Part shown: positions 4,398-18,674 of the stretch, one piece after another
Layout of the letters: each line of letters starts with the position of its first letter
Numbering within the stretch: position 1 is the stretch's first letter
From: Glycomyces sambucus
Lineage (GTDB): Bacteria > Actinomycetota > Actinomycetes > Mycobacteriales > Micromonosporaceae
Direction: 5' to 3'
NCBI RefSeq assembly: GCF_900102815.1
Contig: NZ_FNGF01000003.1
Span: forward strand, 310,001-374,000
DNA length: 64,000 bases
Made by a program: the position numbers and the translations under genes
Notes under the pieces: model-generated
Database searches by the model: none
What the model was told of the DNA's origin: nothing
What the model saw: only the letters and a program-made list of their open reading frames with translations

Positions 4398-4478
4398 GTC
4401 CCCGGGCCCGTGCCCGGGCCCCCGCGCCGCCGGTCCTGCGAGGACCGCGGCGGGCACCGTGCACAGAGGAGGCCGCCG

Positions 4479-5675
4479 ATGGGCAGCACCGACACCGTCC
4501 GGCGCGGCGCCGGGAGGAACCTGGCGCTCGCCACCGCCGCGTTCGCGCTGACGTTCTGGGCGTGGAACCTCATCGGCCCGCTCTCCAAGACCTACGCCGA
4601 CGACCTCGCCCTGAACCCGACCCAGACCTCGGTCCTGGTCGCGTTCCCGGTCCTGGTCGGCGCGGTCGGGCGCATCCCGGCGGGCATCCTCACCGACCGC
4701 TTCGGCGGCCGGGTCATGCTCACGGCCGCGTGCTTCGCGTCGATCGTCCCGGTGCTGCTGGTCGGCCTCTCGGGCGGCTCGTACGCGGCGCTGCTCGCCT
4801 CCGGGTTCCTCCTCGGCCTCGCGGGCACCTCGTTCGCTGTCGGCATCCCGTTCGTGAACGCCTGGTACCCGCCCGCGCGGCGCGGCTTCGCCACCGGGGT
4901 CTTCGGCGCGGGCATGGGCGGCACCGCGCTCTCGGCGTTCCTCACCCCGCGCCTGGTCGACGGGATGGGGCTGCTGCCGACGCACCTGCTCATGTGCGCC
5001 GCGCTCGCGGTCATGGGGTTCGTGTGCTGGTCCTTCGCGCGCGACGCCCCGCAGTGGGCGCCGACCACCGAGCCGGCCCTGCCGCGCCTCAAGGGGGTCA
5101 TGAGACTCAAGGTCACGTGGCAGATGTCGCTGCTGTACGCGGTGGCGTTCGGCGGGTTCGTGGCGTTCTCCACCTACCTGCCGACGATGCTGGTGACCGC
5201 GTACGACCTCGCGCAGACCGACGCGGGCCTGCGCACCGCCGGGTTCAGCCTCGCCGCGGTCGTCGCGCGCCCGGCCGGCGGCATCCTCTCCGACCGGGTG
5301 GGGCCGCTGAAGATCTGCCTCACCTCGTTCTTCGGGGCCGCGGTCATGGCGGTCCTCCTGGCGTTCGAGCCGCCGCTGGAGGTCCCCGCGGGCACCTGCT
5401 TCGTGCTCATGGCCCTGTTCCTGGGCCTGGGCACCGGCGGCGTGTTCGCCCTCGTCGCCGAGCTGGTCGAACCGGCCCGGGTCGGCGGCGTCACCGGGAT
5501 CGTCGGCGCCGCGGGCGGCCTCGGCGGGTACTTCCCGCCGCTGGTCATGGGCGCGGTGTACCAGGCGCGGGGCGACTACTCGATCGCGCTGCTGCTGCTG
5601 GCGCTGACGGCGCTGCTGGTCGGCGTGTTCGCGCTCCAGGCGTTCCGGCGGCCCCAGGCCGCCGTGCCTGCGTGA
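4479..5675 (+). CDS. narK: Nitrate/nitrite transporter NarK (MFS, NNP family)
   Basis: Major facilitator of 398 residues that imports nitrate and/or exports nitrite for the reductase encoded on the other strand. The start at 4479 has an AGAGGAGG ribosome site seven bases upstream; the longer reading from 4410 has none. Family landmarks are the early FWAWNLIGPLSKTYADDLAL segment, the DRFGGR loop between helices 2 and 3, the glycine-rich FGAGMGGTA stretch and the second GIVGAAGGLGGYFPPL signature. About twelve hydrophobic helices are visible. A hairpin at 5699-5738 probably ends its transcript. Confidence 0.95.
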   Translation: MGSTDTVRRGAGRNLALATAAFALTFWAWNLIGPLSKTYADDLALNPTQTSVLVAFPVLVGAVGRIPAGILTDRFGGRVMLTAACFASIVPVLLVGLSGGSYAALLASGFLLGLAGTSFAVGIPFVNAWYPPARRGFATGVFGAGMGGTALSAFLTPRLVDGMGLLPTHLLMCAALAVMGFVCWSFARDAPQWAPTTEPALPRLKGVMRLKVTWQMSLLYAVAFGGFVAFSTYLPTMLVTAYDLAQTDAGLRTAGFSLAAVVARPAGGILSDRVGPLKICLTSFFGAAVMAVLLAFEPPLEVPAGTCFVLMALFLGLGTGGVFALVAELVEPARVGGVTGIVGAAGGLGGYFPPLVMGAVYQARGDYSIALLLLALTALLVGVFALQAFRRPQAAVPA

Positions 5676-5698
5676 TTACTTCTCGCGAATGAAGCGGA

Positions 5699-5738
5699 CC
5701 GGGCCGGAATCAACCTCAAGCATGAGGAACCGGCCCGG
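5699..5738 (+). terminator. Stem-loop after narK
   Basis: CCGGGCCGG (5699-5707) pairs with CCGGCCCGG (5730-5738). An inner CCTC/GAGG pair extends the stem around AAGCAT. There is no T-run, which is normal for this genome. Confidence 0.55.
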
Positions 5739-5759
5739 CCCCGCATCTAGGGTGAAGTC

Positions 5760-6629
5760 ATGTTGGAAATCAAGGACCTGCACAAGCGGTTCGGCGACAC
5801 CGTTGCCCTCGACGGGGTGTCGCTCTCGGCCGAGGCGGGCGAAGTCGTCGGGTTCGTCGGCGCCAACGGCGCCGGGAAGACCACCACCATGCGCATCGCC
5901 ATGGGCGTGCTCGCCGCCGACTCCGGCCAGATCGTCTACGACGGGGCGCCGCTCGGCGTCGAGCAGCGCCGCCGCTTCGGCTACATGCCCTCCGAGCGCG
6001 GCCTCTACCCCAAGATGAAGACCGGTGAGCAGGTCGCCTACTTCGGCGAACTCCACGGGATGACCAAGGCCGAGGCCAAGCGCTCCGCCGCCGAGCTCCT
6101 GGAGCAGCTCAGCCTCACCGAGCGCATCGGCGACTTCGTCCAGGACCTCTCGCTGGGCAACCAGCAGCGCGTCCAGCTCGCCGTCTCCCTCGTCCACGAC
6201 CCCGAGGTGCTCATCCTCGACGAGCCGTTCTCCGGCCTCGACCCGATCGCGGTCGACGTCATGGGCACCGCGCTGCGCGACCGCGCCGCCGCCGGCGCCC
6301 CCGTCATCTTCTCCAGCCACCAGCTCGACCTCATCGAGCGGCTCTGCGACTCCGTCGTCATCATCGGCAACGGCAGGATCATCGCCTCCGGGCCGGTGGA
6401 CGAGCTCAAGGCCAAGGAGGTCAAGCAGCTCCGCATCAGCGTCGAGACCGGCGAGGACCTGACCGCGCGGTTCTCCGGGACCGTCACCCGCGACGGCGAC
6501 GACTACCTCATCGAGGACGGCGACGACCAGGAGGCGCTGCGCATCGCCGCCGCCGCCGGGCGCGTCACCCGCTTCGCCTACGACCAGCCGACCATCGCCG
6601 AGATCTTCCGAGAGGCCGTGACCCGATGA
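5760..6629 (+). CDS. ABC transporter ATP-binding protein, NatA/YhaQ-like
   Basis: ATPase of 289 residues for an ABC-2 type exporter. Walker A is GANGAGKTT (about residues 38-46), the Q-loop lies in the YMPSERGLYPKM segment, the signature is LSLGNQQ, Walker B is VLILDEP, and the switch His is in SSHQLDLIE. The C-terminal 70 residues after the ATPase core match the regulatory tail of NatA-type exporters. It overlaps the permease gene by four bases (ATGA), so the two act as one unit. The substrate is not readable; homologues move sodium, drugs or peptides. Confidence 0.93.
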   Translation: MLEIKDLHKRFGDTVALDGVSLSAEAGEVVGFVGANGAGKTTTMRIAMGVLAADSGQIVYDGAPLGVEQRRRFGYMPSERGLYPKMKTGEQVAYFGELHGMTKAEAKRSAAELLEQLSLTERIGDFVQDLSLGNQQRVQLAVSLVHDPEVLILDEPFSGLDPIAVDVMGTALRDRAAAGAPVIFSSHQLDLIERLCDSVVIIGNGRIIASGPVDELKAKEVKQLRISVETGEDLTARFSGTVTRDGDDYLIEDGDDQEALRIAAAAGRVTRFAYDQPTIAEIFREAVTR

Positions 6630-7807
6630 CGCAGAACGAACCCTCGAAGATGCGCGGGCTCATGCTCGTCGCCGGGCGCGAGATCCGCGTCCGCGGCCTG
6701 TCGAAGTCCAACGTCATCAGCCTCGTCGTCACCGTCGTCATCGTCGGCATCCTCGCCGCGCTCCCCAGCCTCATCGGCGGGGACGACAGCGACACCAGGG
6801 TCGGCCTCTCCGGCGACACCGCGCCCGCCATGCAGGCGCAGCTCGAAGCCATGGGCGGCTTCGACATCACCGTCTTCGACACCGCCGACGAGGCCGAGCG
6901 GGCGGTGGAGGACGAGACCGTCGACGCGGCCGTCGCCGACGGCTCGCTCTTCAGCCTCGACGGCATCGGCAACGAGGACGAGACCAAGATCGACGCCGCC
7001 TGGCAGACCGCCAGCGTCCAGACGAACCTGTCGGACGCCGGGCTCAGCGACCAGCAGATCGGCGAAGCGCTCACCGTGCAGCCGCTGGAGTTCGTGACCC
7101 TGGAGTCCGAGGGCGGCGTCAGCAGCACCCTCGACTACTTCACCGGCCTCATCATCTCCATCATCATGTTCATGATGCTCATGACCCCGGTCCAGTACAT
7201 CGCCATGGGCGTCGTCGAGGAGAAGTCCAGCCGGATCGTCGAGATCCTGCTGACCAGCCTCAAGCCCTGGCAGCTCCTGGGCGGCAAGGTCATCGGCCTC
7301 GGCGTGATCTCCCTGGTCAACCTGATCGCCATGGTCGCCGTCGGCCTCGGCGTCTCGGCCGCCACCGGGATGCTCTCCGACCTGCCGCCGGGCACCGCCG
7401 GCGCGGCGGTCTCCTCGATCGGCTGGTGGCTCATCGCGTTCGCGCTGTTCGGCACCCTCGCCGGCGGGGTCGGCTCGCTCGTATCGCGCCAGGAGGAGTC
7501 CGGGTCGGTCCTGACCCCGCTTATCATGTCGCTGACGCTCTCCTACCTCGGCGCGATCTTCCTGCTCAACGCGCCGACGAGCACGTTCGCGGAGGTCCTG
7601 TCGATCGTCCCGCCGTTCTCCGGCATCGCGATGCCCACCCGCATGGCGATCACCGAGGTCCCGGCCTGGCAGATCGGGCTCTCCGCCCTGCTCCTGGCGC
7701 TCGCCGCGGCCGGGGCGCTCGCGCTCGGCTCGCAGCTGTACAAGCGCAGCGTCCTGTACACCGGCTCGCGCATGAAGATCAGCGAGGCGCTCCGCCGCGC
7801 CGCCTAG
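6626..7807 (+). CDS. ABC-2 type permease, NatB-like
   Basis: Membrane partner (393 residues) of the preceding ATPase. A short cytoplasmic start leads to one N-terminal helix (about residues 27-47). A soluble domain of roughly 120 residues follows, rich in acidic residues and predicted extracytoplasmic. Then come about five helices, with the family segment GVVEEKSSRIVEILLTSLKP after the second helix. This is the layout of sodium or drug efflux permeases (NatB, YhaP). The ATGA overlap with the upstream gene indicates translational coupling; the operon ends at the hairpin at 7821. Confidence 0.92.
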   Translation: MTQNEPSKMRGLMLVAGREIRVRGLSKSNVISLVVTVVIVGILAALPSLIGGDDSDTRVGLSGDTAPAMQAQLEAMGGFDITVFDTADEAERAVEDETVDAAVADGSLFSLDGIGNEDETKIDAAWQTASVQTNLSDAGLSDQQIGEALTVQPLEFVTLESEGGVSSTLDYFTGLIISIIMFMMLMTPVQYIAMGVVEEKSSRIVEILLTSLKPWQLLGGKVIGLGVISLVNLIAMVAVGLGVSAATGMLSDLPPGTAGAAVSSIGWWLIAFALFGTLAGGVGSLVSRQEESGSVLTPLIMSLTLSYLGAIFLLNAPTSTFAEVLSIVPPFSGIAMPTRMAITEVPAWQIGLSALLLALAAAGALALGSQLYKRSVLYTGSRMKISEALRRAA

Positions 7808-11830: not shown

Positions 11831-14095
11831 ATGTCGCGAGCACTGAAGCTGAGCTATGACGCACCCGCGGAAGCCTGGCACGACGGCCTCCCCCTGGGGA
11901 ACGGCCGGATCGGGGCCATGCTGTGGGGGGACCGGATCGACCTGAACGAGGACGGCTTCTGGGCGGGCGGCGGCGCGCACCCCGTGCCCGACGGCGTCGA
12001 GGGCATCGCGGCCGAGGCCGCCGAGCTGGTGCGCCGCGGCGAGTACTTCGCCGCCGATCAGCTCGTCTCCCGCCTCCAGGGCCCGAGCCCCCACGCCTAC
12101 CAGCCCGCGGGCGCGTTCATCGCGGTCCACTCCGACTCCACCTCCGACCCCGAGACCGGCACCGAGCACCGCGAGCTCGACCTGCGCGACGGTGTCGCGA
12201 CGGCCGTGCGCGGCCGGGTCCGCCAGGAGGTCTTCGCGTCGGTCGCCTACGACGTCATCGCGATCCGCTGGAGCGCCGACGAGCCGTTCGACCTCGATCT
12301 GCGCTTCGCGTGGCCGCACGAGGGCGGCTCGACCGTCGCCGACTACGACGAGTTGAGCTTCACCGGGCACGCGCCCGTGAGCGTCCAGAGCGGCACGCCC
12401 GACTACTCGTCCACCGCGGGCGTGCGCCGGCTCGGCCTGAACGCGCAGCTGCGCTGCGACGGCGACGCGGCCCCCGCCGAGGGCGGGCACCGCTTCACCG
12501 GCTGCCGGGAAATCGAGGTCTACCTGGCGCTCCGCTCCGACTTCGACGGGGACGCGGCCCTCGACCGGGCGCGGGACGAGGCCCGGCGCGCCGCAGCGAA
12601 CGGCTGGAAGGGCCTCCTCCACGACCACGTCGCGGCCCACCGGTCCGTGATGGACCGGGTCGGCCTCGAACTCGGTCCGCAAGAGCCCGTTGAGGAACCG
12701 ACCTCGGAGCGGCTGCGCCGCCGCGCGGCGGGCGGGTCCGACGAGGGCCTGGCGGTGCTCGCGTTCCAGTTCGGGCGCTACCTCCTGGCCGCGTCCTCGC
12801 GGCCGGGCACGCAGGCCGCGAACCTCCAGGGCATCTGGAACGACCGGGTCACGCCGCCGTGGAACTGCGACTACACCACCAACATCAACGTCGAGATGAA
12901 CTACTGGCCCGCCGAGACCTGCGGCCTGCCGGAGTTCCACGAGCCGCTGTTCGACCTCGTCGACGGGCTCGCGGCCACCGGTGCCGAGACCGCGCGGAGG
13001 CTCTACGGCGCGGGCGGCTGGTGCTGCCACCACAACACCGACTACTGGCGCCTGACCACGCCCGTCGACGGCCGGGCCTGCTGGCAGGCGTGGCCGATGG
13101 GCGGGCTGTGGCTGTCGATGCACCTCGCCGAGCACTGGAGGTTCGGGCGCGACGAGGAGTTCCTGGCCGACCGGCTCCCCGTGGTCCTCGGCGCGGCGCG
13201 CTTCGCGTTCGACCGCCTCTCGGAGGGCAGGGACGGCACGCTGGTCACCAGCCCCGCGTCGAGCCCGGAGAACGAGTTCGTCACGCCGCAGGGGAACTCG
13301 GCGATCGACGAGTCGACGGGGATGGACGCGGCGCTCGTGCGCGAGCTGTTCGCGTTCGTGGTCGAGGCCGCCGACGTGGTCGCCGAGACCCTGCACGGCG
13401 CGGACCTCCAGCTCGTCAAGGACATCGAGGAGGCGCTGCCGCGCCTGGCCGGCCCGAAGGTCGGCGCCGACGGGCGGCTCCTGGAGTGGGCGGACGAGCG
13501 CGAGGAGGCCGAGCCGCACCACCGGCACGTCTCGCACCTGTACGGGGTCTTCCCCGGCGACTCGCTCGCCGACTCCCCCGAGCTGCTCGACGCGGCCCGC
13601 AAGAGCCTCGAAGCGCGCGGCGACGCCGGGACCGGCTGGTCGCTCGCGTGGAAGACCGCGCTGTGGGCGCGCCTGGGCGACGGCGACCGGGCGCACCGGC
13701 TGCTCGGGGAGTTCCTGACCCCGGTCGGGTTCCGCGGCGAGGGCGCGGAGTACGCCGACGGCGGCGTCTACTCCTCGCTGCTGTGCGCGCACCCGCCGTT
13801 CCAGATCGACGGGAACTTCGGGACGACCGCGGCGATCGCCGAGATGCTGGTGCAGTCGCACCGCACCGACGACGGCGACCCGGTGATCGAACTGCTCCCG
13901 GCGCTGCCGGGCGCGTGGCCCGAGGGCGAGGTGCGGGGCCTGCGGGCCCGCGGCGGGGTCACCGTCGAGCGCCTGGCCTGGAAGGACGGGGAGGTCACGG
14001 ACCTGGAGCTGGTGTCGGCCGGCGGCGCGCGGGTGCTGGTGCGGGGCCAGGCCGTGCACCTCGCGGCCGGCGTCCCGTGGACGCTCGCGGTCTGA
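11831..14095 (+). CDS. GH95 family alpha-L-fucosidase
   Basis: Cytoplasmic enzyme of 754 residues (no signal peptide) that removes alpha-linked L-fucose by inversion; some GH95 members act on L-galactose. The order is the N-terminal beta-sandwich (LPLGNGRIGAMLWG), a linker, an (alpha/alpha)6 barrel and a C-terminal beta domain. Diagnostic motifs are SSRPGTQAANLQGIWN, YTTNINVEMNYWPAET (its two Asn match the catalytic asparagines of characterised members), HHNTDYWR, and FQIDGNFGTTAAI near residue 655. It is a single gene behind a palindromic operator, with no transporter beside it, so it may use intracellular oligosaccharides. Confidence 0.93.
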   Translation: MSRALKLSYDAPAEAWHDGLPLGNGRIGAMLWGDRIDLNEDGFWAGGGAHPVPDGVEGIAAEAAELVRRGEYFAADQLVSRLQGPSPHAYQPAGAFIAVHSDSTSDPETGTEHRELDLRDGVATAVRGRVRQEVFASVAYDVIAIRWSADEPFDLDLRFAWPHEGGSTVADYDELSFTGHAPVSVQSGTPDYSSTAGVRRLGLNAQLRCDGDAAPAEGGHRFTGCREIEVYLALRSDFDGDAALDRARDEARRAAANGWKGLLHDHVAAHRSVMDRVGLELGPQEPVEEPTSERLRRRAAGGSDEGLAVLAFQFGRYLLAASSRPGTQAANLQGIWNDRVTPPWNCDYTTNINVEMNYWPAETCGLPEFHEPLFDLVDGLAATGAETARRLYGAGGWCCHHNTDYWRLTTPVDGRACWQAWPMGGLWLSMHLAEHWRFGRDEEFLADRLPVVLGAARFAFDRLSEGRDGTLVTSPASSPENEFVTPQGNSAIDESTGMDAALVRELFAFVVEAADVVAETLHGADLQLVKDIEEALPRLAGPKVGADGRLLEWADEREEAEPHHRHVSHLYGVFPGDSLADSPELLDAARKSLEARGDAGTGWSLAWKTALWARLGDGDRAHRLLGEFLTPVGFRGEGAEYADGGVYSSLLCAHPPFQIDGNFGTTAAIAEMLVQSHRTDDGDPVIELLPALPGAWPEGEVRGLRARGGVTVERLAWKDGEVTDLELVSAGGARVLVRGQAVHLAAGVPWTLAV

Positions 14096-14116
14096 AGCGG
14101 CTTTAGGACACAGGGG

Positions 14117-14147
14117 AGCGGCCGGAGTCCAGAGGACTCCGGCCGCT
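14117..14147. terminator. Bidirectional terminator after the fucosidase gene
   Basis: AGCGGCCGGAGTCC (14117-14130) pairs perfectly with GGACTCCGGCCGCT (14134-14147). It serves the fucosidase and the convergent secreted-protein gene. Confidence 0.85.
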
Positions 14148-14169
14148 TGGGTATGAAAGACGATCCCGG

Positions 14170-14670
14170 TCAGCAGGTGGACGTGACGTTCGCCTGTCCG
14201 ACAGAGAAACCGCAGACGGACCACTGGAAGGCTCCGGTGGTGTCGGCGTTGACCAGCGACATCCCGCTCCCGGGACTGACCGGTTCCTGCGGGCCCTGGA
14301 TCGAGTTGTCGCACACGGCGCCCTGGGCCTCGGCCGCGACCGCGACCCCGCAGACCTTCCACTTCGCGAAGTTCCGCAGGTCGACGTTGGCGAGCGAGGC
14401 GCCACCGTAGCCCGCGGGGGTCTCCGGAAGGGCCTCGCCGTGCGCCATCTCGTCCGGTGCGGGCGATCCGAGGACCGTCCCGCAGGCCATGTCCGTGATC
14501 GCGCCGGCCTGGTCGGACTCGCAGACGCCGGGAAGGACCGAGTCGTGCTCGGACTCCACGGTGGCGAGCGTCAGCCAGTCGGGTGTGGAGGCCTGGGCCG
14601 CCCCGCCCGTGAGCGCCGCTGCCGCGGCGGCTGCGGCGGCCGAGACCGCCACCATGGTGGTGTTTCGCAT
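14170..14670 (-). CDS. Small secreted protein with two divergent Cys-pair repeats
   Basis: 166 residues: signal peptide (MRNTTMVAV, Ala-rich core, cut near AQA), about 60 residues of unmatched sequence with two cysteines, then two copies of the pattern S-L-x-N-x-D...W-x-V-C-G-x(11)-C. These are SLANVDLRNFAKWKVCG... and SLVNADTTGAFQWSVCG... . The Cys-x12-Cys spacing and the preceding Trp are those of the three genes upstream, so this is a diverged member of the same family. It ends on the last repeat cysteine. Function not known; see findings. Confidence 0.8.
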   Translation of the reverse strand: MRNTTMVAVSAAAAAAAAALTGGAAQASTPDWLTLATVESEHDSVLPGVCESDQAGAITDMACGTVLGSPAPDEMAHGEALPETPAGYGGASLANVDLRNFAKWKVCGVAVAAEAQGAVCDNSIQGPQEPVSPGSGMSLVNADTTGAFQWSVCGFSVGQANVTSTC

Positions 14671-14713
14671 GTTCCTCTACCTTTTCTCGACCAAACCGGG
14701 GGAGGCGACTGGT

Positions 14714-15268
14714 CTAGTAGTCGCCCTGGTCGTCGCCCTTGTCGGGGTGGTCGCCGTCGTCGGAGACGTGGTCGGCGTTGAGGCACTGCTGGTTCCACGA
14801 CGGCGCGACGAGCACGTTCTGGCCGCAGATCTGCCAGTGCGCGGCCGAGGAGGCGTCGAGGTTGGCGGCCGAGACCTCGCTGGAGTCGATGCCCGAGCCC
14901 GCGTTGTCGCCGAAGTGGTCGCGGTTGTCGCAGACCTGGTCGAACGACTGGGCGAGCACGTTCTGGCCGCAGATCTGCCAGTGCGCGGCCGAGGAGGCGT
15001 CGACGTTGGCGAGCGAGACGTCGCCGGCGTCGACGCCGGAGCCCTGGTCGTCGCCGAAGTGGTCGCGGTTGTCGCAGTTCTGGTCGTACGACTGGGTCAG
15101 GATGTTCTGACCGCAGATCTGCCAGTGCGCGGCCGACGACGCGTCGACGTTGACGAGGGACACGGGGCCGGCGTTGACACCGGAGGCCGCGGCCATGACG
15201 GGCGAAGCCGCACCGAGGGCGGCGACGGCGCCGGCAGCGGCGGCGGTGACGGCGAGAACCTTGCGCAT
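14714..15268 (-). CDS. Small secreted protein with three Cys-pair repeats
   Basis: 184 residues. The signal peptide (MRKVLAVTAAAAGAVAALG, cut near MAAA) is followed by three repeats of about 44 residues. Each has SGV-x-A-G-x-VSL-x-NVDASSAAHWQICGQN and a second Cys 12-13 residues after the first, then DNRDHFG or NADH. The C-terminus is a short acidic tail (DKGDDQGDY). The start is supported by AAAGGA. The pattern resembles chaplins (CGN-x-V ... FGN-x-C) with a shorter loop between the cysteines, but I would not assign it to that family. Confidence 0.85.
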   Translation of the reverse strand: MRKVLAVTAAAAGAVAALGAASPVMAAASGVNAGPVSLVNVDASSAAHWQICGQNILTQSYDQNCDNRDHFGDDQGSGVDAGDVSLANVDASSAAHWQICGQNVLAQSFDQVCDNRDHFGDNAGSGIDSSEVSAANLDASSAAHWQICGQNVLVAPSWNQQCLNADHVSDDGDHPDKGDDQGDY

Positions 15269-15292
15269 GTGATGAGTCCTTTCGTAAGTGAC

Positions 15293-15323
15293 GGGGCGGG
15301 CCCTCAGGCTGAGGGCCCGCCCC
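15293..15323 (-). terminator. Terminator between repeat-protein genes
   Basis: GGGGCGGGCCCTCAG and CTGAGGGCCCGCCCC form a perfect 15-bp stem with a single central base. It starts nine bases past the stop of the 15332 gene. Confidence 0.8.
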
Positions 15324-15331
15324 CGGTCGAA

Positions 15332-15709
15332 TTACTCGGCCGCGTGGGTCAGGTGGTCGTAGTTCTTGCAGTCCTGGTCGAGCGACGGCGCGACGCCGAC
15401 GTTCTGGCCGCAGATCTGCCAGTGGGCGGCGTCCGAGATGTCCAGGTTGCCGAGCGACACGTCGCCCGCCTGCACACCCGACTGCGGGCCCATCCCGATG
15501 TGGTCGCGGTTGTCGCAGTTCTGACCGAACGACTGGGTCAGCACGTTCTGGCCGCAGATCTGCCAGTGGGCCGCGCTGGAAGCGTCGATGTTCACCAGGC
15601 TGACCGGGCCCGCCCAGACGCCCGAGTTCTGGGCCATGGCGGTCCCGGCGGAGCCGAGAGCGGCGACCGCTCCGGCAGCGGCGGCGGTGACGGCGAGAGC
15701 CTTGCGCAT
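15332..15709 (-). CDS. Small secreted protein with two Cys-pair repeats (copy A)
   Basis: 125 residues. The signal peptide MRKALAVTAAAAGAVAALGS is cut near AMAQ. The mature protein is almost entirely two repeats: NIDASSAAHWQICGQNVLTQ, Cys, DNRDHIG; then NLDISDAAHWQICGQNVGVA, Cys, KNYDHL. Cys spacing is x12 in the first repeat and x13 in the second. The ATG at 15709 has GGGGAA upstream; longer readings are shadows. It is very similar in DNA and protein to the next gene (15793), pointing to recent duplication or gene conversion. Confidence 0.85.
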   Translation of the reverse strand: MRKALAVTAAAAGAVAALGSAGTAMAQNSGVWAGPVSLVNIDASSAAHWQICGQNVLTQSFGQNCDNRDHIGMGPQSGVQAGDVSLGNLDISDAAHWQICGQNVGVAPSLDQDCKNYDHLTHAAE

Positions 15710-15752
15710 TGTTTGTTCCCCGTTCTTCGTCGGATTTCTTGGTGATTCCGCG

Positions 15753-15783
15753 GGGCGGTCCGTCCGGTGAGGACGGCCCGCCC
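15753..15783 (-). terminator. Stem-loop after the 15793 gene
   Basis: GGGCGG-T-CCGTCC (15753-15765) pairs with GGACGG-C-CCGCCC (15771-15783), one mismatch, loop GGTGA. It shows that members of the family are separately terminated. Confidence 0.65.
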
Positions 15784-15792
15784 TGGGAGGTC

Positions 15793-16161
15793 CTACTCGT
15801 TCAGGTGGTCGTAGTTCAGGCACTGCTGGTCGAGCGACGGCGAGACGCCGACGTTCTGGCCGCAGATCTGCCAGTGGGCGGCGTCCGAGACGTCCAGGTT
15901 GGCCAGCGACACGTCGCCCGCCTGGATGCCGGACTGCGGGCCGGGGCCGATGTGGTCGCGGTTGTCGCAGACCTGGCCGAACGACTGGGTCAGCACGTTC
16001 TGGCCGCAGATCTGCCAGTGGGCGGCCGAGGAGGCGTCGATGTTCACCAGGCTGACCGGGCCTGCCCAGACGCCGGAGTTCTGGGCCATGGCGGAGCCGG
16101 CGGAGCCGAGAGCGGCGACGGCGCCGGCAGCGGCGGCGGTGACGACGAGAGCCTTGCGCAT
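15793..16161 (-). CDS. Small secreted protein with two Cys-pair repeats (copy B)
   Basis: 122 residues: MRKALVVTAAAAGAVAALGS signal, cut near AMAQ, then two repeats (NIDASSAAHWQICGQNVLTQ... and NLDVSDAAHWQICGQNVGVS...) ending NYDHLNE. It differs from the 15332 protein at only a handful of positions. Start at 16161, with AGAAGGAAA about nine bases upstream. Secreted, small, Asn/Gln/Val-rich with paired cysteines: features of proteins that assemble on hyphal surfaces. This is inference from composition, not from a recognised domain. Confidence 0.85.
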   Translation of the reverse strand: MRKALVVTAAAAGAVAALGSAGSAMAQNSGVWAGPVSLVNIDASSAAHWQICGQNVLTQSFGQVCDNRDHIGPGPQSGIQAGDVSLANLDVSDAAHWQICGQNVGVSPSLDQQCLNYDHLNE

Positions 16162-16333
16162 GAGTTGCGGTTTCCTTCTGGGTTGTGCGCCCGATCGTTC
16201 GGGCGGCTTTCTCTGATGTCCACCGCCCCTGCGGGGGCGGCGGTGACGGCCTGCCGCGCGTCGGCGCGCCGGACGGCCCGGGCGCGAGGCCCGGAGCACT
16301 GACCGAGGGGGAGGCGAAGGCGGACTTCGATTC

Positions 16334-16351
16334 CCGCGCGTCGACGCGCGG
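16334..16351 (-). terminator. Perfect 18-bp GC palindrome after the 16357 gene
   Basis: CCGCGCGTCGACGCGCGG begins six bases past the stop. Three weaker GC hairpins lie between it and the next gene start (16188-16204, about 16225-16245, about 16275-16300), so the 195-base gap holds hairpins and no evident gene. Confidence 0.55.
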
Positions 16352-16356
16352 CGGCC

Positions 16357-17373
16357 CTAGTCTGGGGCGACGGACAGCTCGGCGGCGCGGTCCAACGGCC
16401 GCCCCAATTCCCCGATCACCGTGCGGGAGAGTGACACCTCTTCCCCCCCGGCGGACGGGGAGACGCAGACAGCGTTGTGGCCGCTGTCGACGCTGATACC
16501 GGCGGTCGAGCCAGTGGCTCCACCGGGGATGATCTTCAGGCCGGGAAGCGCGGGGCCGTGGTGCCCCCACGGCTTCGCCGCGGTGCGCGGCGCGCCGCCC
16601 ACCGCTTCGACCTCGGACTGGTCCGTCCCCCGCGAGCCGTGATCGGCTGCGGAGCACTCGAAGGCGGCGGCCGGCCGGCCGCTGGGCGCTCCTCGGAGCG
16701 CCGCCGCCACCTCGCTGGAGTCGGTACTCGCCGCAAGTGTGGTGAAGCTCGGCTGTCCTGCGGCAGCGGCGAGGACGCTCCCGGGCGTCGTCGCGTCGCC
16801 GAGACGCAGGCCATCGGTCACCAGTCGCGCCAGGTCGCCGACCTGATCGGTCGGGGGCGCGACAGTCTCATAGACACCGGACACCACGGGGGCGGGGCGG
16901 TCCGCGATGGACGCCGTTCCCTGCACGAGGGTTCCCACCAGTGGTGCCACTACTTCGGCGGTGCCGTCTCCGACGGACTTGTCGTCCAGGTCGAGCAAGC
17001 CGGGTCCGGCACCGGTCGGCAGCACGGAGTGCACGGCCTCGTCCGTCTCGTCCACCAGTGATCCCATCGGCGCTGACAGGCCCGACACCAGCCCCGTGAC
17101 CTCCCCCTGCACCGCCGGCGTCCGATGTCCCTGCTGGTTCTGCGGGACCAGTCGCGCGGCCAGGCGCGACATGTCGGAGACCTCTGCGGAGAGGGGGTCG
17201 GTCATCGCGGCAAGGCCCTGCGATGATGCGGAATCGTCTGATGCCCAAGCGGAAGTCGCCAATGCGAAGGCCCCCAAGAGAAGAGAGCCGAATGCTGTGA
17301 GCGCGGCGCCGAGGAGGAACCGGAGCACGCTGAGGCGGCGAGAACTCCCGCTGCCTCCGGCGATGCGTCCCAT
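16357..17373 (-). CDS. Secreted protein of unknown function
   Basis: 338 residues from the ATG at 17373 (GGGGGAG four bases upstream). A basic start and a long hydrophobic segment (FLLGAALTAFGSLLLGAFAL) end in a likely cleavage site near AWA-SDD. The mature part is Ala/Gly/Ser/Val-rich, with repeated short amphipathic segments of the type LVxGLxAPVxxLV. Its two cysteines are far apart, in the last 90 residues. No domain is recognised. Placed upstream of the Cys-pair family in the same orientation, but separated by 195 bases of hairpins, so co-regulation is possible rather than shown. Confidence 0.75.
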   Translation of the reverse strand: MGRIAGGSGSSRRLSVLRFLLGAALTAFGSLLLGAFALATSAWASDDSASSQGLAAMTDPLSAEVSDMSRLAARLVPQNQQGHRTPAVQGEVTGLVSGLSAPMGSLVDETDEAVHSVLPTGAGPGLLDLDDKSVGDGTAEVVAPLVGTLVQGTASIADRPAPVVSGVYETVAPPTDQVGDLARLVTDGLRLGDATTPGSVLAAAAGQPSFTTLAASTDSSEVAAALRGAPSGRPAAAFECSAADHGSRGTDQSEVEAVGGAPRTAAKPWGHHGPALPGLKIIPGGATGSTAGISVDSGHNAVCVSPSAGGEEVSLSRTVIGELGRPLDRAAELSVAPD

Positions 17374-17533
17374 CGTCTCCCCCGTCGTCCTGAACCTGAG
17401 TCGCGAGCGGTCCCGCCGCTCGCACAGGTATGAACGAGAACGGACCAACGGGGGATACGGGGTGAATCAGATTTTCTCCCCGAAATAGGGCGAGAAGGAC
17501 TCACAGCCCCTCGTTCCTCACGCACAGCACCGG

Positions 17534-17549
17534 TTAACACACTGTTTAC
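17534..17549 (+). promoter_or_regulatory. GlnR-like box upstream of glnII
   Basis: TTAAC-n6-TTTAC fits the relaxed GlnR pattern gTnAC-n6-GnAAC (TnAC in both halves). It lies 112 bases before the glnII ATG in an AT-richer patch. GlnR control of glnII is established in Streptomyces; here the site is inferred from pattern and position. Confidence 0.45.
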
Positions 17550-17660
17550 AAGTGATCAACGAGCGGGAAATTGCCGTTTGGGAGCGTGGCAGCACAGCCC
17601 CAGGCCCGGCCGGTCCGAGCCCCGAGCTGGACCGCGTATTGAAGAAGGGCTCCCAACCTG

Positions 17661-18674
17661 ATGGCGATCAAAGCCGAGTACATCTGGATCGACGGCACCG
17701 AGCCGACGGCCAAGCTGCGTTCCAAGACCAAGATCCTCGGCGCCGGCGAGGAGCCGCCGATCTGGGGATTCGACGGCTCCAGCACCAACCAGGCCGAGGG
17801 CCACACCTCGGACTGCGTGCTGCGCCCCGTCAAGGTCGTGCCGGACCCCATCCGCGGCGGCGAGCACCTCCTGGTCCTGTGCGAGGTCCTCGACATCGAC
17901 TTCACCCCGCACCCCTCGAACACCCGCGCCGCCGCGGCCGAGACCGCCGAGCGGTACGCGGGCCAGGAGTCCTGGTTCGGCATCGAGCAGGAGTACACCT
18001 TCATGGTCGGCGAGCGCCCGCTCGGCTTCCCCGAGGGCGGCTACCCGGCCCCCCAGGGCGGCTACTACTGCGGCGTGGGCTCCGACGAGATCTTCGGCCG
18101 CGAGATCGTCGAGAAGCACCTCGACAACTGCCTCGCCGCCGGGCTGCCGATCTCCGGCATCAACGCCGAGGTCATGCCCGGACAGTGGGAGTTCCAGGTC
18201 GGCCCCGCCTCGGCCCTGGAGGTCTCCGACTCGCTGTGGCTGGCCCGCTGGCTGCTGTACCGCACCGCCGAGGAGTGGAACGTCTCCGCGACCATCGACC
18301 CCAAGCCCGCCAAGGGCGACTGGAACGGCGCCGGCTGCCACACCAACTTCTCCACCAAGGCGATGCGCGAGGACTACGAGCCCATCATCGCCGCGTGCGA
18401 GGCCCTGGGCGAGAAGGCCGCCGAGCACATCGCCGTCTACGGCGACGGCATCGCCGACCGCCTGACCGGCGCCCACGAGACCGCCCACTACACCGAGTTC
18501 TCCTACGGCGTCTCCAACCGCGGCGCCTCGATCCGCATCCCGTGGCAGGTCGAGAAGGACAAGAAGGGCTACCTCGAGGACCGCCGCCCCAACGCCAACA
18601 TGGACCCCTACCTCGTCACCGGCAAGATCGTCGACACGGTCTGCGCGGCTCTGGAGAAGAAGGGCCTGGTCTAG
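17661..18674 (+). CDS. glnII: Glutamine synthetase type II (GSII)
   Basis: Cytoplasmic enzyme of 337 residues making glutamine from glutamate, ammonia and ATP. Length and motifs are those of the eukaryote-like GSII, not GlnA (about 470): AEYIWIDGTEP start, WGFDGSSTNQAEGHTSDC, FGIEQEYTFM, INAEVMPGQWEFQVGP, GAGCHTNFSTKAMR, and the C-terminal RRPNANMDPY. GSII lacks the adenylylation site, so control should be transcriptional, matching the GlnR-like box upstream. The start is the ATG at 17661, with AAGGG about twelve bases before it. A strong hairpin at 18701 ends the unit. Confidence 0.97.
   Translation: MAIKAEYIWIDGTEPTAKLRSKTKILGAGEEPPIWGFDGSSTNQAEGHTSDCVLRPVKVVPDPIRGGEHLLVLCEVLDIDFTPHPSNTRAAAAETAERYAGQESWFGIEQEYTFMVGERPLGFPEGGYPAPQGGYYCGVGSDEIFGREIVEKHLDNCLAAGLPISGINAEVMPGQWEFQVGPASALEVSDSLWLARWLLYRTAEEWNVSATIDPKPAKGDWNGAGCHTNFSTKAMREDYEPIIAACEALGEKAAEHIAVYGDGIADRLTGAHETAHYTEFSYGVSNRGASIRIPWQVEKDKKGYLEDRRPNANMDPYLVTGKIVDTVCAALEKKGLV

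What the first reader, a model, noticed from the sequence alone, without database searches (positions are those of the whole stretch)
14170..16161. Four-gene family of secreted Cys-pair repeat proteins, chaplin-like but not chaplins
Four adjacent same-strand genes encode small exported proteins built from nine copies in total (2+3+2+2) of one module: SLxNxD, a Trp, CG at the first Cys, and a second Cys 12-13 residues on. Seen directly: signal peptides, repeat pattern, almost no other mature sequence in three of them. Established: chaplins of Streptomyces have a CGN-x-V...FGN-x-C core and assemble as surface amyloids. Inference: these may be a distinct hydrophobin-like or amyloid surface family coating hyphae or spores. 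This is my leading candidate for an undescribed system.
Basis: partly seen in the sequence, partly recalled or inferred. Interest (0 to 1): 0.8.

Follow-up and report, generated by a model that had tools for sequence, protein, structure and literature searches.

The report
Secreted cysteine-pair repeat proteins of Glycomyces
Four neighbouring genes in a soil bacterium (Glycomyces) make small exported proteins built from one repeated cysteine-pair unit that the family libraries searched here do not describe; nearly every genome sampled from the genus has them, and they most likely form part of the coat on its filaments, though no experiment shows that yet.

Summary
Four minus-strand genes (15793-16161, 15332-15709, 14714-15268, 14170-14670) encode signal-peptide proteins made of 2, 2, 3 and 2 copies of a 44-48 residue module; the fourth has an extra cysteine pair. 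Pfam and NCBIfam show no relative. The cluster is in 21 of 22 genomes of the genus (Glycomyces) and, outside it, convincingly only in Phytomonospora, Actinorhabdospora and two unnamed genera of the same family. Cysteine spacing is 12 or 13 in 120 of 120 CG...C pairs, dN/dS is below 1 in 18 of 18 comparisons, and gene 3 ends in a tail, KGxDQGD, found once per genome in 20 of 22. It is not a chaplin or rodlin by profile tests, though decoy tests leave a faint local signal to both. All 25 sampled genomes with the module also carry chaplins; one rodlin query found no convincing rodlin in the genus; g1 and g2 resemble rodlins in size and composition. Best reading: secreted, disulfide-locked structural proteins of the hyphal or spore surface, perhaps doing what rodlins do in Streptomyces. 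That function is inferred. AlphaFold gave no usable model (pLDDT 40 and 34), and a possible promoter element shared with the chaplin gene is weak evidence.

The parts
15793..16161 (-). g1: secreted two-module protein, 122 aa
15332..15709 (-). g2: secreted two-module protein, 125 aa; close paralogue of g1 (200 of 216 identical bases over the first 72 codons)
14714..15268 (-). g3: secreted three-module protein, 184 aa, with conserved C-terminal tail KGDDQGDY
14170..14670 (-). g4: secreted protein, 166 aa, TPDWLT near the mature N-terminus, two divergent modules plus an N-terminal C-x12-C pair
16357..17373 (-). 338-aa protein with signal-like N-terminus (by eye), no Pfam or NCBIfam match; upstream neighbour conserved in Glycomyces
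16162..16260 (-). leader with two hairpins before g1, conserved in the 11 sequences aligned
   Evidence: (z -2.96)
15710..15792 (-). g1-g2 intergenic hairpin (conservation not tested)
   Evidence: z -3.49
15269..15331 (-). g2-g3 intergenic hairpin, largely kept in the 13 sequences aligned
   Evidence: (z -5.29)
16296..16323 (-). degenerate copy in this species of an upstream element that in some relatives resembles one before the chaplin gene; tentative

Best explanation
A four-gene unit, probably one transcript, makes secreted structural proteins of the Glycomyces cell surface (hyphae or spores). Shown by sequence: signal peptides, tandem modules with fixed cysteine spacing, conserved gene order, purifying selection. 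Inferred: each module closes one disulfide loop (C-x12/13-C); modules stack or polymerise into an extracellular layer; the proteins work beside the chaplins the same genomes encode, in a role like that of Streptomyces rodlins; g3, with its unique tail, may cap, dock or anchor the assembly, and g4 is a specialised partner.
For: Export signals: 71 of 71 proteins pass a loose A-x-A pattern. The mature parts of g1 and g2 are almost only modules, and g3 is modules plus a tail. Spacing is 12 or 13 in 120 of 120 CG...C pairs of 54 non-g4 proteins, with a pattern that allowed 9-17. Gene order 2, 2, 2-3 modules with tail, g4 in 11 of 18 Glycomyces loci; the rest are a four-module variant, three-gene versions or cut by contig ends. 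dN/dS 0.12-0.70 in 18 of 18 comparisons with 5 of the 20 named loci. 25 of 25 sampled genomes with the module hold chaplins, against 95 of 175 without it, taking the two 200-genome samples as the same, as the listed handles indicate. One rodlin query gave no convincing match in 22 genomes of the genus (best E 0.02). Mature g1/g2 against three of the nine rodlins: 96/99 vs 108-109 aa, GRAVY -0.25/-0.33 vs -0.23 to -0.40, N+Q 20/18% vs 20-24%. Strong hairpins in the leader and two gaps, conservation tested for the leader and the g2-g3 gap, would suit a stable, abundant message (inference). KGxDQGD is coded once per genome, at g3, in 20 of 22.
Against: No structure: pLDDT 40 and 34. No expression, localisation or aggregation data. 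21 of the 25 module genomes are one genus, so the chaplin association is confounded by ancestry (5 of 5 module genera against 27 of 44 overall). g1-g3 are polar and acidic (charges -8, -8, -21), unlike the three rodlins (-2 to -3) and the short chaplin measured (-1, GRAVY 0.19), though the Glycomyces chaplin is acidic too (-20, GRAVY 0.07). g3 and g4 do not match rodlin composition (GRAVY -0.54 and 0.05; N+Q 17% and 8%). G017 (3.3 Mb, 92% complete) has chaplins but no module. The promoter link is weak, and in this species ranks only 14 of 166 windows. That Glycomyces forms aerial hyphae and spores is recalled, not shown here.
Confidence: 0.5

Rival explanations
1. Secreted binding proteins (adhesins, polysaccharide or metal binders, or protease inhibitors) whose repeats add avidity; no assembled layer.
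For: Small Cys-rich repeats with conserved N-x-D and W-x-[IV]-C (W in 151 of 157 occurrences) could fit a ligand site. The downstream neighbour is a GH95 glycosidase in 16 of 18 Glycomyces loci.
Against: The GH95 gene is convergent and was not detected beside the clusters of Phytomonospora, Actinorhabdospora and G033. No binding-domain family matches. AlphaFold predicts no compact fold, which with these shallow alignments is weak evidence.
Confidence: 0.2
2. True but very diverged homologues of chaplins or rodlins, with similarity below normal detection.
For: Glycomyces chaplin repeats have C-x13-C, as some modules do. hhalign scores exceed most column shuffles (2 of 150 reach the chaplin score, 5 of 150 the rodlin score). 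The chaplin HMM scores one g4-type relative (8.0 bits) above 1560 of 1560 decoys, and the module HMM scores three of nine rodlins above 450 of 450 decoys, on a 13-residue stretch ending in Q-C.
Against: hhalign probabilities are 5% and 2%. In the other directions decoys do as well: 24 of 1560 reach the best module with the rodlin HMM, and 5 of 600 reach the best chaplin with the module HMM. The alignments seen cover only the second-cysteine region.
Confidence: 0.18
3. Secreted bioactive peptides or interbacterial effectors.
For: Small exported disulfide proteins in several paralogues. ABC and MFS transporter genes lie in the window, about 6 kb or more from g4 (4410-7807).
Against: No processing enzyme was recognised among the neighbours examined; an immunity gene could go unrecognised. 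Present in 21 of 22 genomes of the genus, with the same flanking gene on the upstream or downstream side in all 18 named Glycomyces loci. No match in phage or plasmid records with g1 as query.
Confidence: 0.07

Closest known systems
Chaplins (Pfam PF03777, ChpA-C)
   Same: Secreted, Cys-paired, often tandem repeats in actinomycetes; [IV]CG at Cys1; C-x13-C in some repeats of both; found in the same genomes
   Different: No PF03777 match; lacks the chaplin GN...P...P stretch before Cys1; has SLxNxD and a Trp three residues before Cys1, neither seen in the 12 chaplin repeats; no LPxTG-type anchor by eye
Rodlins RdlA/RdlB (Streptomyces)
   Same: Small secreted paralogues, about 100 aa mature, similar hydropathy and N/Q content (g1, g2), a short N-V-L...Q-C stretch
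   Different: Rodlins have 2 Cys some 33-34 residues apart (counted in two sequences) and no such tandem module; no membership by hhalign, HMM evidence mixed; PMC4255298 (passages read) reports obvious rodlins only in streptomycetes
Fungal hydrophobins
   Same: Small secreted Cys-rich surface proteins (recalled)
   Different: Eight-Cys pattern (recalled) absent: mature g1 and g2 have 4 Cys, g3 and g4 six

Membership tests
Chaplin (PF03777) | Match to the Pfam profile above its curated cut-off | tested here: not met
   four window proteins, E up to 10; 0 of 42 and 0 of 16 aligned members, E up to 0.1
Chaplin (PF03777) | Profile-profile similarity over the whole domain | tested here: not met
   5% probability, 20 columns; 2 of 150 column shuffles reach the score; one g4-type relative scores above all 1560 decoys with a chaplin HMM
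Chaplin (PF03777) | Secretion signal | tested here: met
   by eye, and 71 of 71 by a loose pattern; no dedicated signal-peptide predictor was available
Chaplin (PF03777) | Assembly as surface amyloid | not testable with these tools
   needs purified protein
Rodlin | Sequence similarity to RdlA/RdlB-type rodlins | tested here: not met
   2%, 12 columns; rodlin HMM not above decoys; module HMM finds a 13-residue local match in three of nine rodlins above decoys
Rodlin | Secreted paralogue pair of about 100 mature residues of similar composition | tested here: met
   g1 and g2 against three rodlins; g3 and g4 differ
Rodlin | Needed for the rodlet layer | not testable with these tools
   needs deletion and electron microscopy
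Hydrophobin | Eight cysteines in a fixed pattern (recalled) | tested here: not met
   mature Cys counts 4, 4, 6, 6

The most novel reading that the evidence does not exclude
A previously undescribed class of bacterial surface-assembly protein: a disulfide-locked 44-residue module that polymerises into the outer sheath of Glycomyces hyphae or spores, filling in a lineage without detected rodlins the place that rodlins hold beside chaplins, with the gene-3 tail KGxDQGD as a unique docking or capping tag.
Probability: 0.25. Interest if true: 0.75.

Novelty: new variant of a known kind. Interest (0 to 1): 0.5.

Why it matters
How actinomycetes outside Streptomyces coat their aerial cells is poorly known (general knowledge). 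PMC4255298, a 2013 review (passages read), reports obvious rodlins only in streptomycetes and chaplin-like genes in a few other genera; one search finds chaplins in 27 of 44 genera of this one family sample, so the coat is wider spread than its partners are known. A compact, lineage-specific repeat family kept in 21 of 22 genomes of the genus is a directly testable candidate for a second, independently evolved solution, and a small repeat unit for materials work.

Tried and rejected
Weak library matches (PhoD, 17.2 bits against a cut-off of 27, E 0.003; Cucumo_2B; PepSY_MTB; SpaH/EbpB pilin; XAC0231; formate_TAT; Spt4; BphC_D1; DUF5382_C; LIC10280) lie far below cut-offs or appear in one or two members, and were treated as chance. 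PDB, searched with g3 only, gave one match at E 1.6.

Structure-based search: both AlphaFold jobs gave pLDDT 40 and 34 with pTM 0.22-0.23, so no fold search was run.

Homology to chaplins or rodlins: tested by hhalign, column shuffles and HMM decoys in both directions; not accepted as membership, kept as a rival. On rechecking I added the chaplin-HMM result (0 of 1560 decoys reach the best module protein), which I had left out, and raised that rival from 0.15 to 0.18.

Wider distribution: the phylum sample (396 genomes, model A2; only 11 candidates per genome were scored in the rows shown) matched only the window's genome. In the class sample (345 genomes, module model A5) five other genomes matched at E 2e-4 to 0.0095; of the four loci I looked at, one (L116) has a VCG...C stretch in a 75-aa arginine-rich frame without SLxNxD and the others show no module; I judged them chance. 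An order-sample match (G202, 7.7e-4) was dropped without a look, as were six genomes of the family sample that matched the G081 protein at E 5e-4 to 0.0096. The Syntrophothermus MAG hit covers 25 residues and was dropped.

Sorting-signal idea for KGxDQGD: rejected, since the pattern occurs once per genome and only at gene 3.

Shared promoter element: a lead only. The pattern was made from the two loci themselves; 13 of its 40 matches lie there (8 chaplin, 5 module), against 3 control matches. The fairer scan put the module upstream in the top 4 windows in 8 of 15 species (ties not counted against it), at 7, 8, 14, 25, 28, 63 and 86 in the others; the species are not independent, and a 16th pair had no motif.

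Hairpin alignments used only part of the loci I had (13 and 11 sequences). The 71 proteins are those of named loci and the window that start with M and score above 60.

Rfam: no match in 14000-17600. Papers: searches listed nothing on these proteins; I saw search listings plus passages of PMC5314377, PMC4255298, PMC10794386 and PMC3187754; a look in PMC6113628 found no passage.

Full report
WHAT IS THERE. Four ORFs on the minus strand, in transcription order g1 15793-16161, g2 15332-15709, g3 14714-15268, g4 14170-14670, lie between an exported-looking 338-aa gene upstream (16357-17373) and a convergent glycoside hydrolase family 95 gene downstream (11831-14095). Each begins with a signal peptide (by eye; a loose pattern). 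The module, in g1, reads SGVWAGPVSLVNIDASSAAHWQICGQNVLTQSFGQVCDNRDHIG. g1 and g2 have two, g3 three, g4 two divergent ones; profile comparison shows that g4 modules are related to the others (99.1%). g4 also has an N-terminal C-x12-C pair, conserved in its relatives.

NOT CHANCE. In the genome only these four loci match convincingly (two further matches are at E 0.1 and 0.4). In the genus 21 of 22 genomes match; the exception, G017, is 3.3 Mb and 92% complete. In a 200-genome family sample 25 genomes in 5 of 44 genera have it, including an orphan two-module gene in G081. The class (345) and phylum (396) samples gave nothing further that I found convincing. Cysteine spacing is 12 (77) or 13 (43) in all 120 CG...C pairs of 54 non-g4 proteins; one of the 54 has an odd Cys number. 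dN/dS is 0.12-0.70 in 18 of 18 gene pairs against five named loci.

ANATOMY OF THE UNIT. Of 18 Glycomyces loci, 11 show two-module, two-module, a 2-3 module protein, then g4; L077 has 2, 4 and 4 modules before g4; L076 and L080 show three genes; L069, L071, L079 and L081 are cut by contig ends. The KGxDQGD tail ends 17 of the 54 non-g4 proteins and as a DNA pattern occurs exactly once, at gene 3, in 20 of 22 genomes; G003 has the variant ending in H, which the pattern could not match, and G017 lacks the cluster. The g1-g2 and g2-g3 gaps and the leader fold into strong hairpins (z -3.5, -5.3, -3.0; the g3-g4 gap does not, z +0.6). In the sequences aligned, pairs with compensatory changes are 3 of 12 for the g2-g3 gap (13 sequences) and 2 of 15 for the leader (11 sequences); some sequences break pairs. 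g1 and g2 share 200 of 216 bases over the first 72 codons, suggesting recent duplication or gene conversion (inference). In Phytomonospora and Actinorhabdospora the three-gene unit lies beside different genes.

WHAT IT IS NOT. No Pfam or NCBIfam match of note, and none in PDB with g3. Chaplins: the same genome has a separate 334-aa chaplin ORF with four repeats; module-chaplin hhalign probability is 5% over 20 columns. Rodlins, obtained by querying plasmid records with RdlB letters from PMC5314377: 2% over 12 columns. Controls are mixed. Column shuffles reach the score in 2 of 150 (chaplin) and 5 of 150 (rodlin). A chaplin HMM scores one g4-type relative above all 1560 decoys, and the module HMM scores three of nine rodlins above all 450 decoys on 13 residues; but 24 of 1560 decoys reach the best module with the rodlin HMM, and 5 of 600 reach the best chaplin with the module HMM. 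So membership is not met, and distant kinship is not excluded. A rodlin query of 22 genomes of the genus gave best E 0.02, in the signal-peptide part of a module gene.

HOW IT MOST LIKELY WORKS. Shown: exported (by signal), built largely of repeats (g1-g3), Cys-paired, conserved in the genus, selected, operon-like. Inferred: each module closes a disulfide loop; modules self-assemble outside the cell; the proteins are structural parts of the hyphal or spore surface, beside the chaplins that 25 of 25 sampled module-bearing genomes encode (95 of 175 others do too). By genus this is 5 of 5 against 27 of 44, weak because of shared ancestry. g1 and g2 resemble three rodlins in size, hydropathy and N+Q content, but are more acidic; g3 and g4 differ. 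AlphaFold modelled neither mature g1 (pLDDT 40) nor g4 (34), so no structural claim is made.

REGULATION LEAD. The chaplin gene of the genus has a conserved upstream block (AACTCTCCCGGTTTCAATGCACC-like; recovered by pattern in 18 of 20 genomes). The module cluster of several species has AACTC(TC)CC..CCGGTTGCAGTGC at a similar distance. Scanning each species' chaplin block against its own module locus, the module upstream ranked in the top 4 windows in 8 of 15 species and 7 to 86 in the rest; it is 14 of 166 in the window's species. Suggestive only.

LITERATURE. PMC4255298 (passages) describes chaplins and rodlins as exoskeletal proteins, chaplin-like genes in a few genera outside streptomycetes including Stackebrandtia, and obvious rodlins only in streptomycetes, with very low-scoring hits in Thermomonospora and Stackebrandtia. 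[quoted passage not shown] Searches pairing Glycomyces or Glycomycetaceae with chaplin, hydrophobin or amyloid, and rodlin with Stackebrandtia, listed nothing on this family.

VERDICT. A real, lineage-restricted secreted repeat family that the libraries and papers searched do not describe. It probably works like known actinomycete surface proteins but meets the membership tests of none. Function unproven.

Noticed in passing
15269-15331, 15710-15792 and 16162-16260 (-): Strong RNA hairpins in two intergenic gaps and in the leader of the cluster; possible message-stability or processing elements. No Rfam match.
   Followed up: partly
16357-17373 (-): 338-aa exported-looking protein of no Pfam or NCBIfam family, upstream of the cluster in 16 of the 24 loci searched (16 of 18 from Glycomyces; the other two are cut at a contig end) and not detected in the Phytomonospora, Actinorhabdospora, G033 or G081 loci.
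   Followed up: partly
L104 2109-3113: The chaplin of this genome is one 334-aa ORF with four chaplin repeats, one of which has Ser in place of both Cys.
   Followed up: partly
17661-18674 (+): Glutamine synthetase gene divergent from the upstream exported gene; found in 15 of the 24 loci searched.
   Followed up: no
14118-14146: Inverted repeat between the convergent GH95 gene and g4, seen by eye; likely shared terminator.
   Followed up: no
L077 4451-5119 and 5194-5898: Glycomyces salinus has two four-module versions, so module number varies between species.
   Followed up: no
L107 and L108: Phytomonospora and Actinorhabdospora clusters share a neighbourhood (a Maf-like gene by eye and a conserved unnamed gene) that differs from that of Glycomyces.
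   Followed up: no
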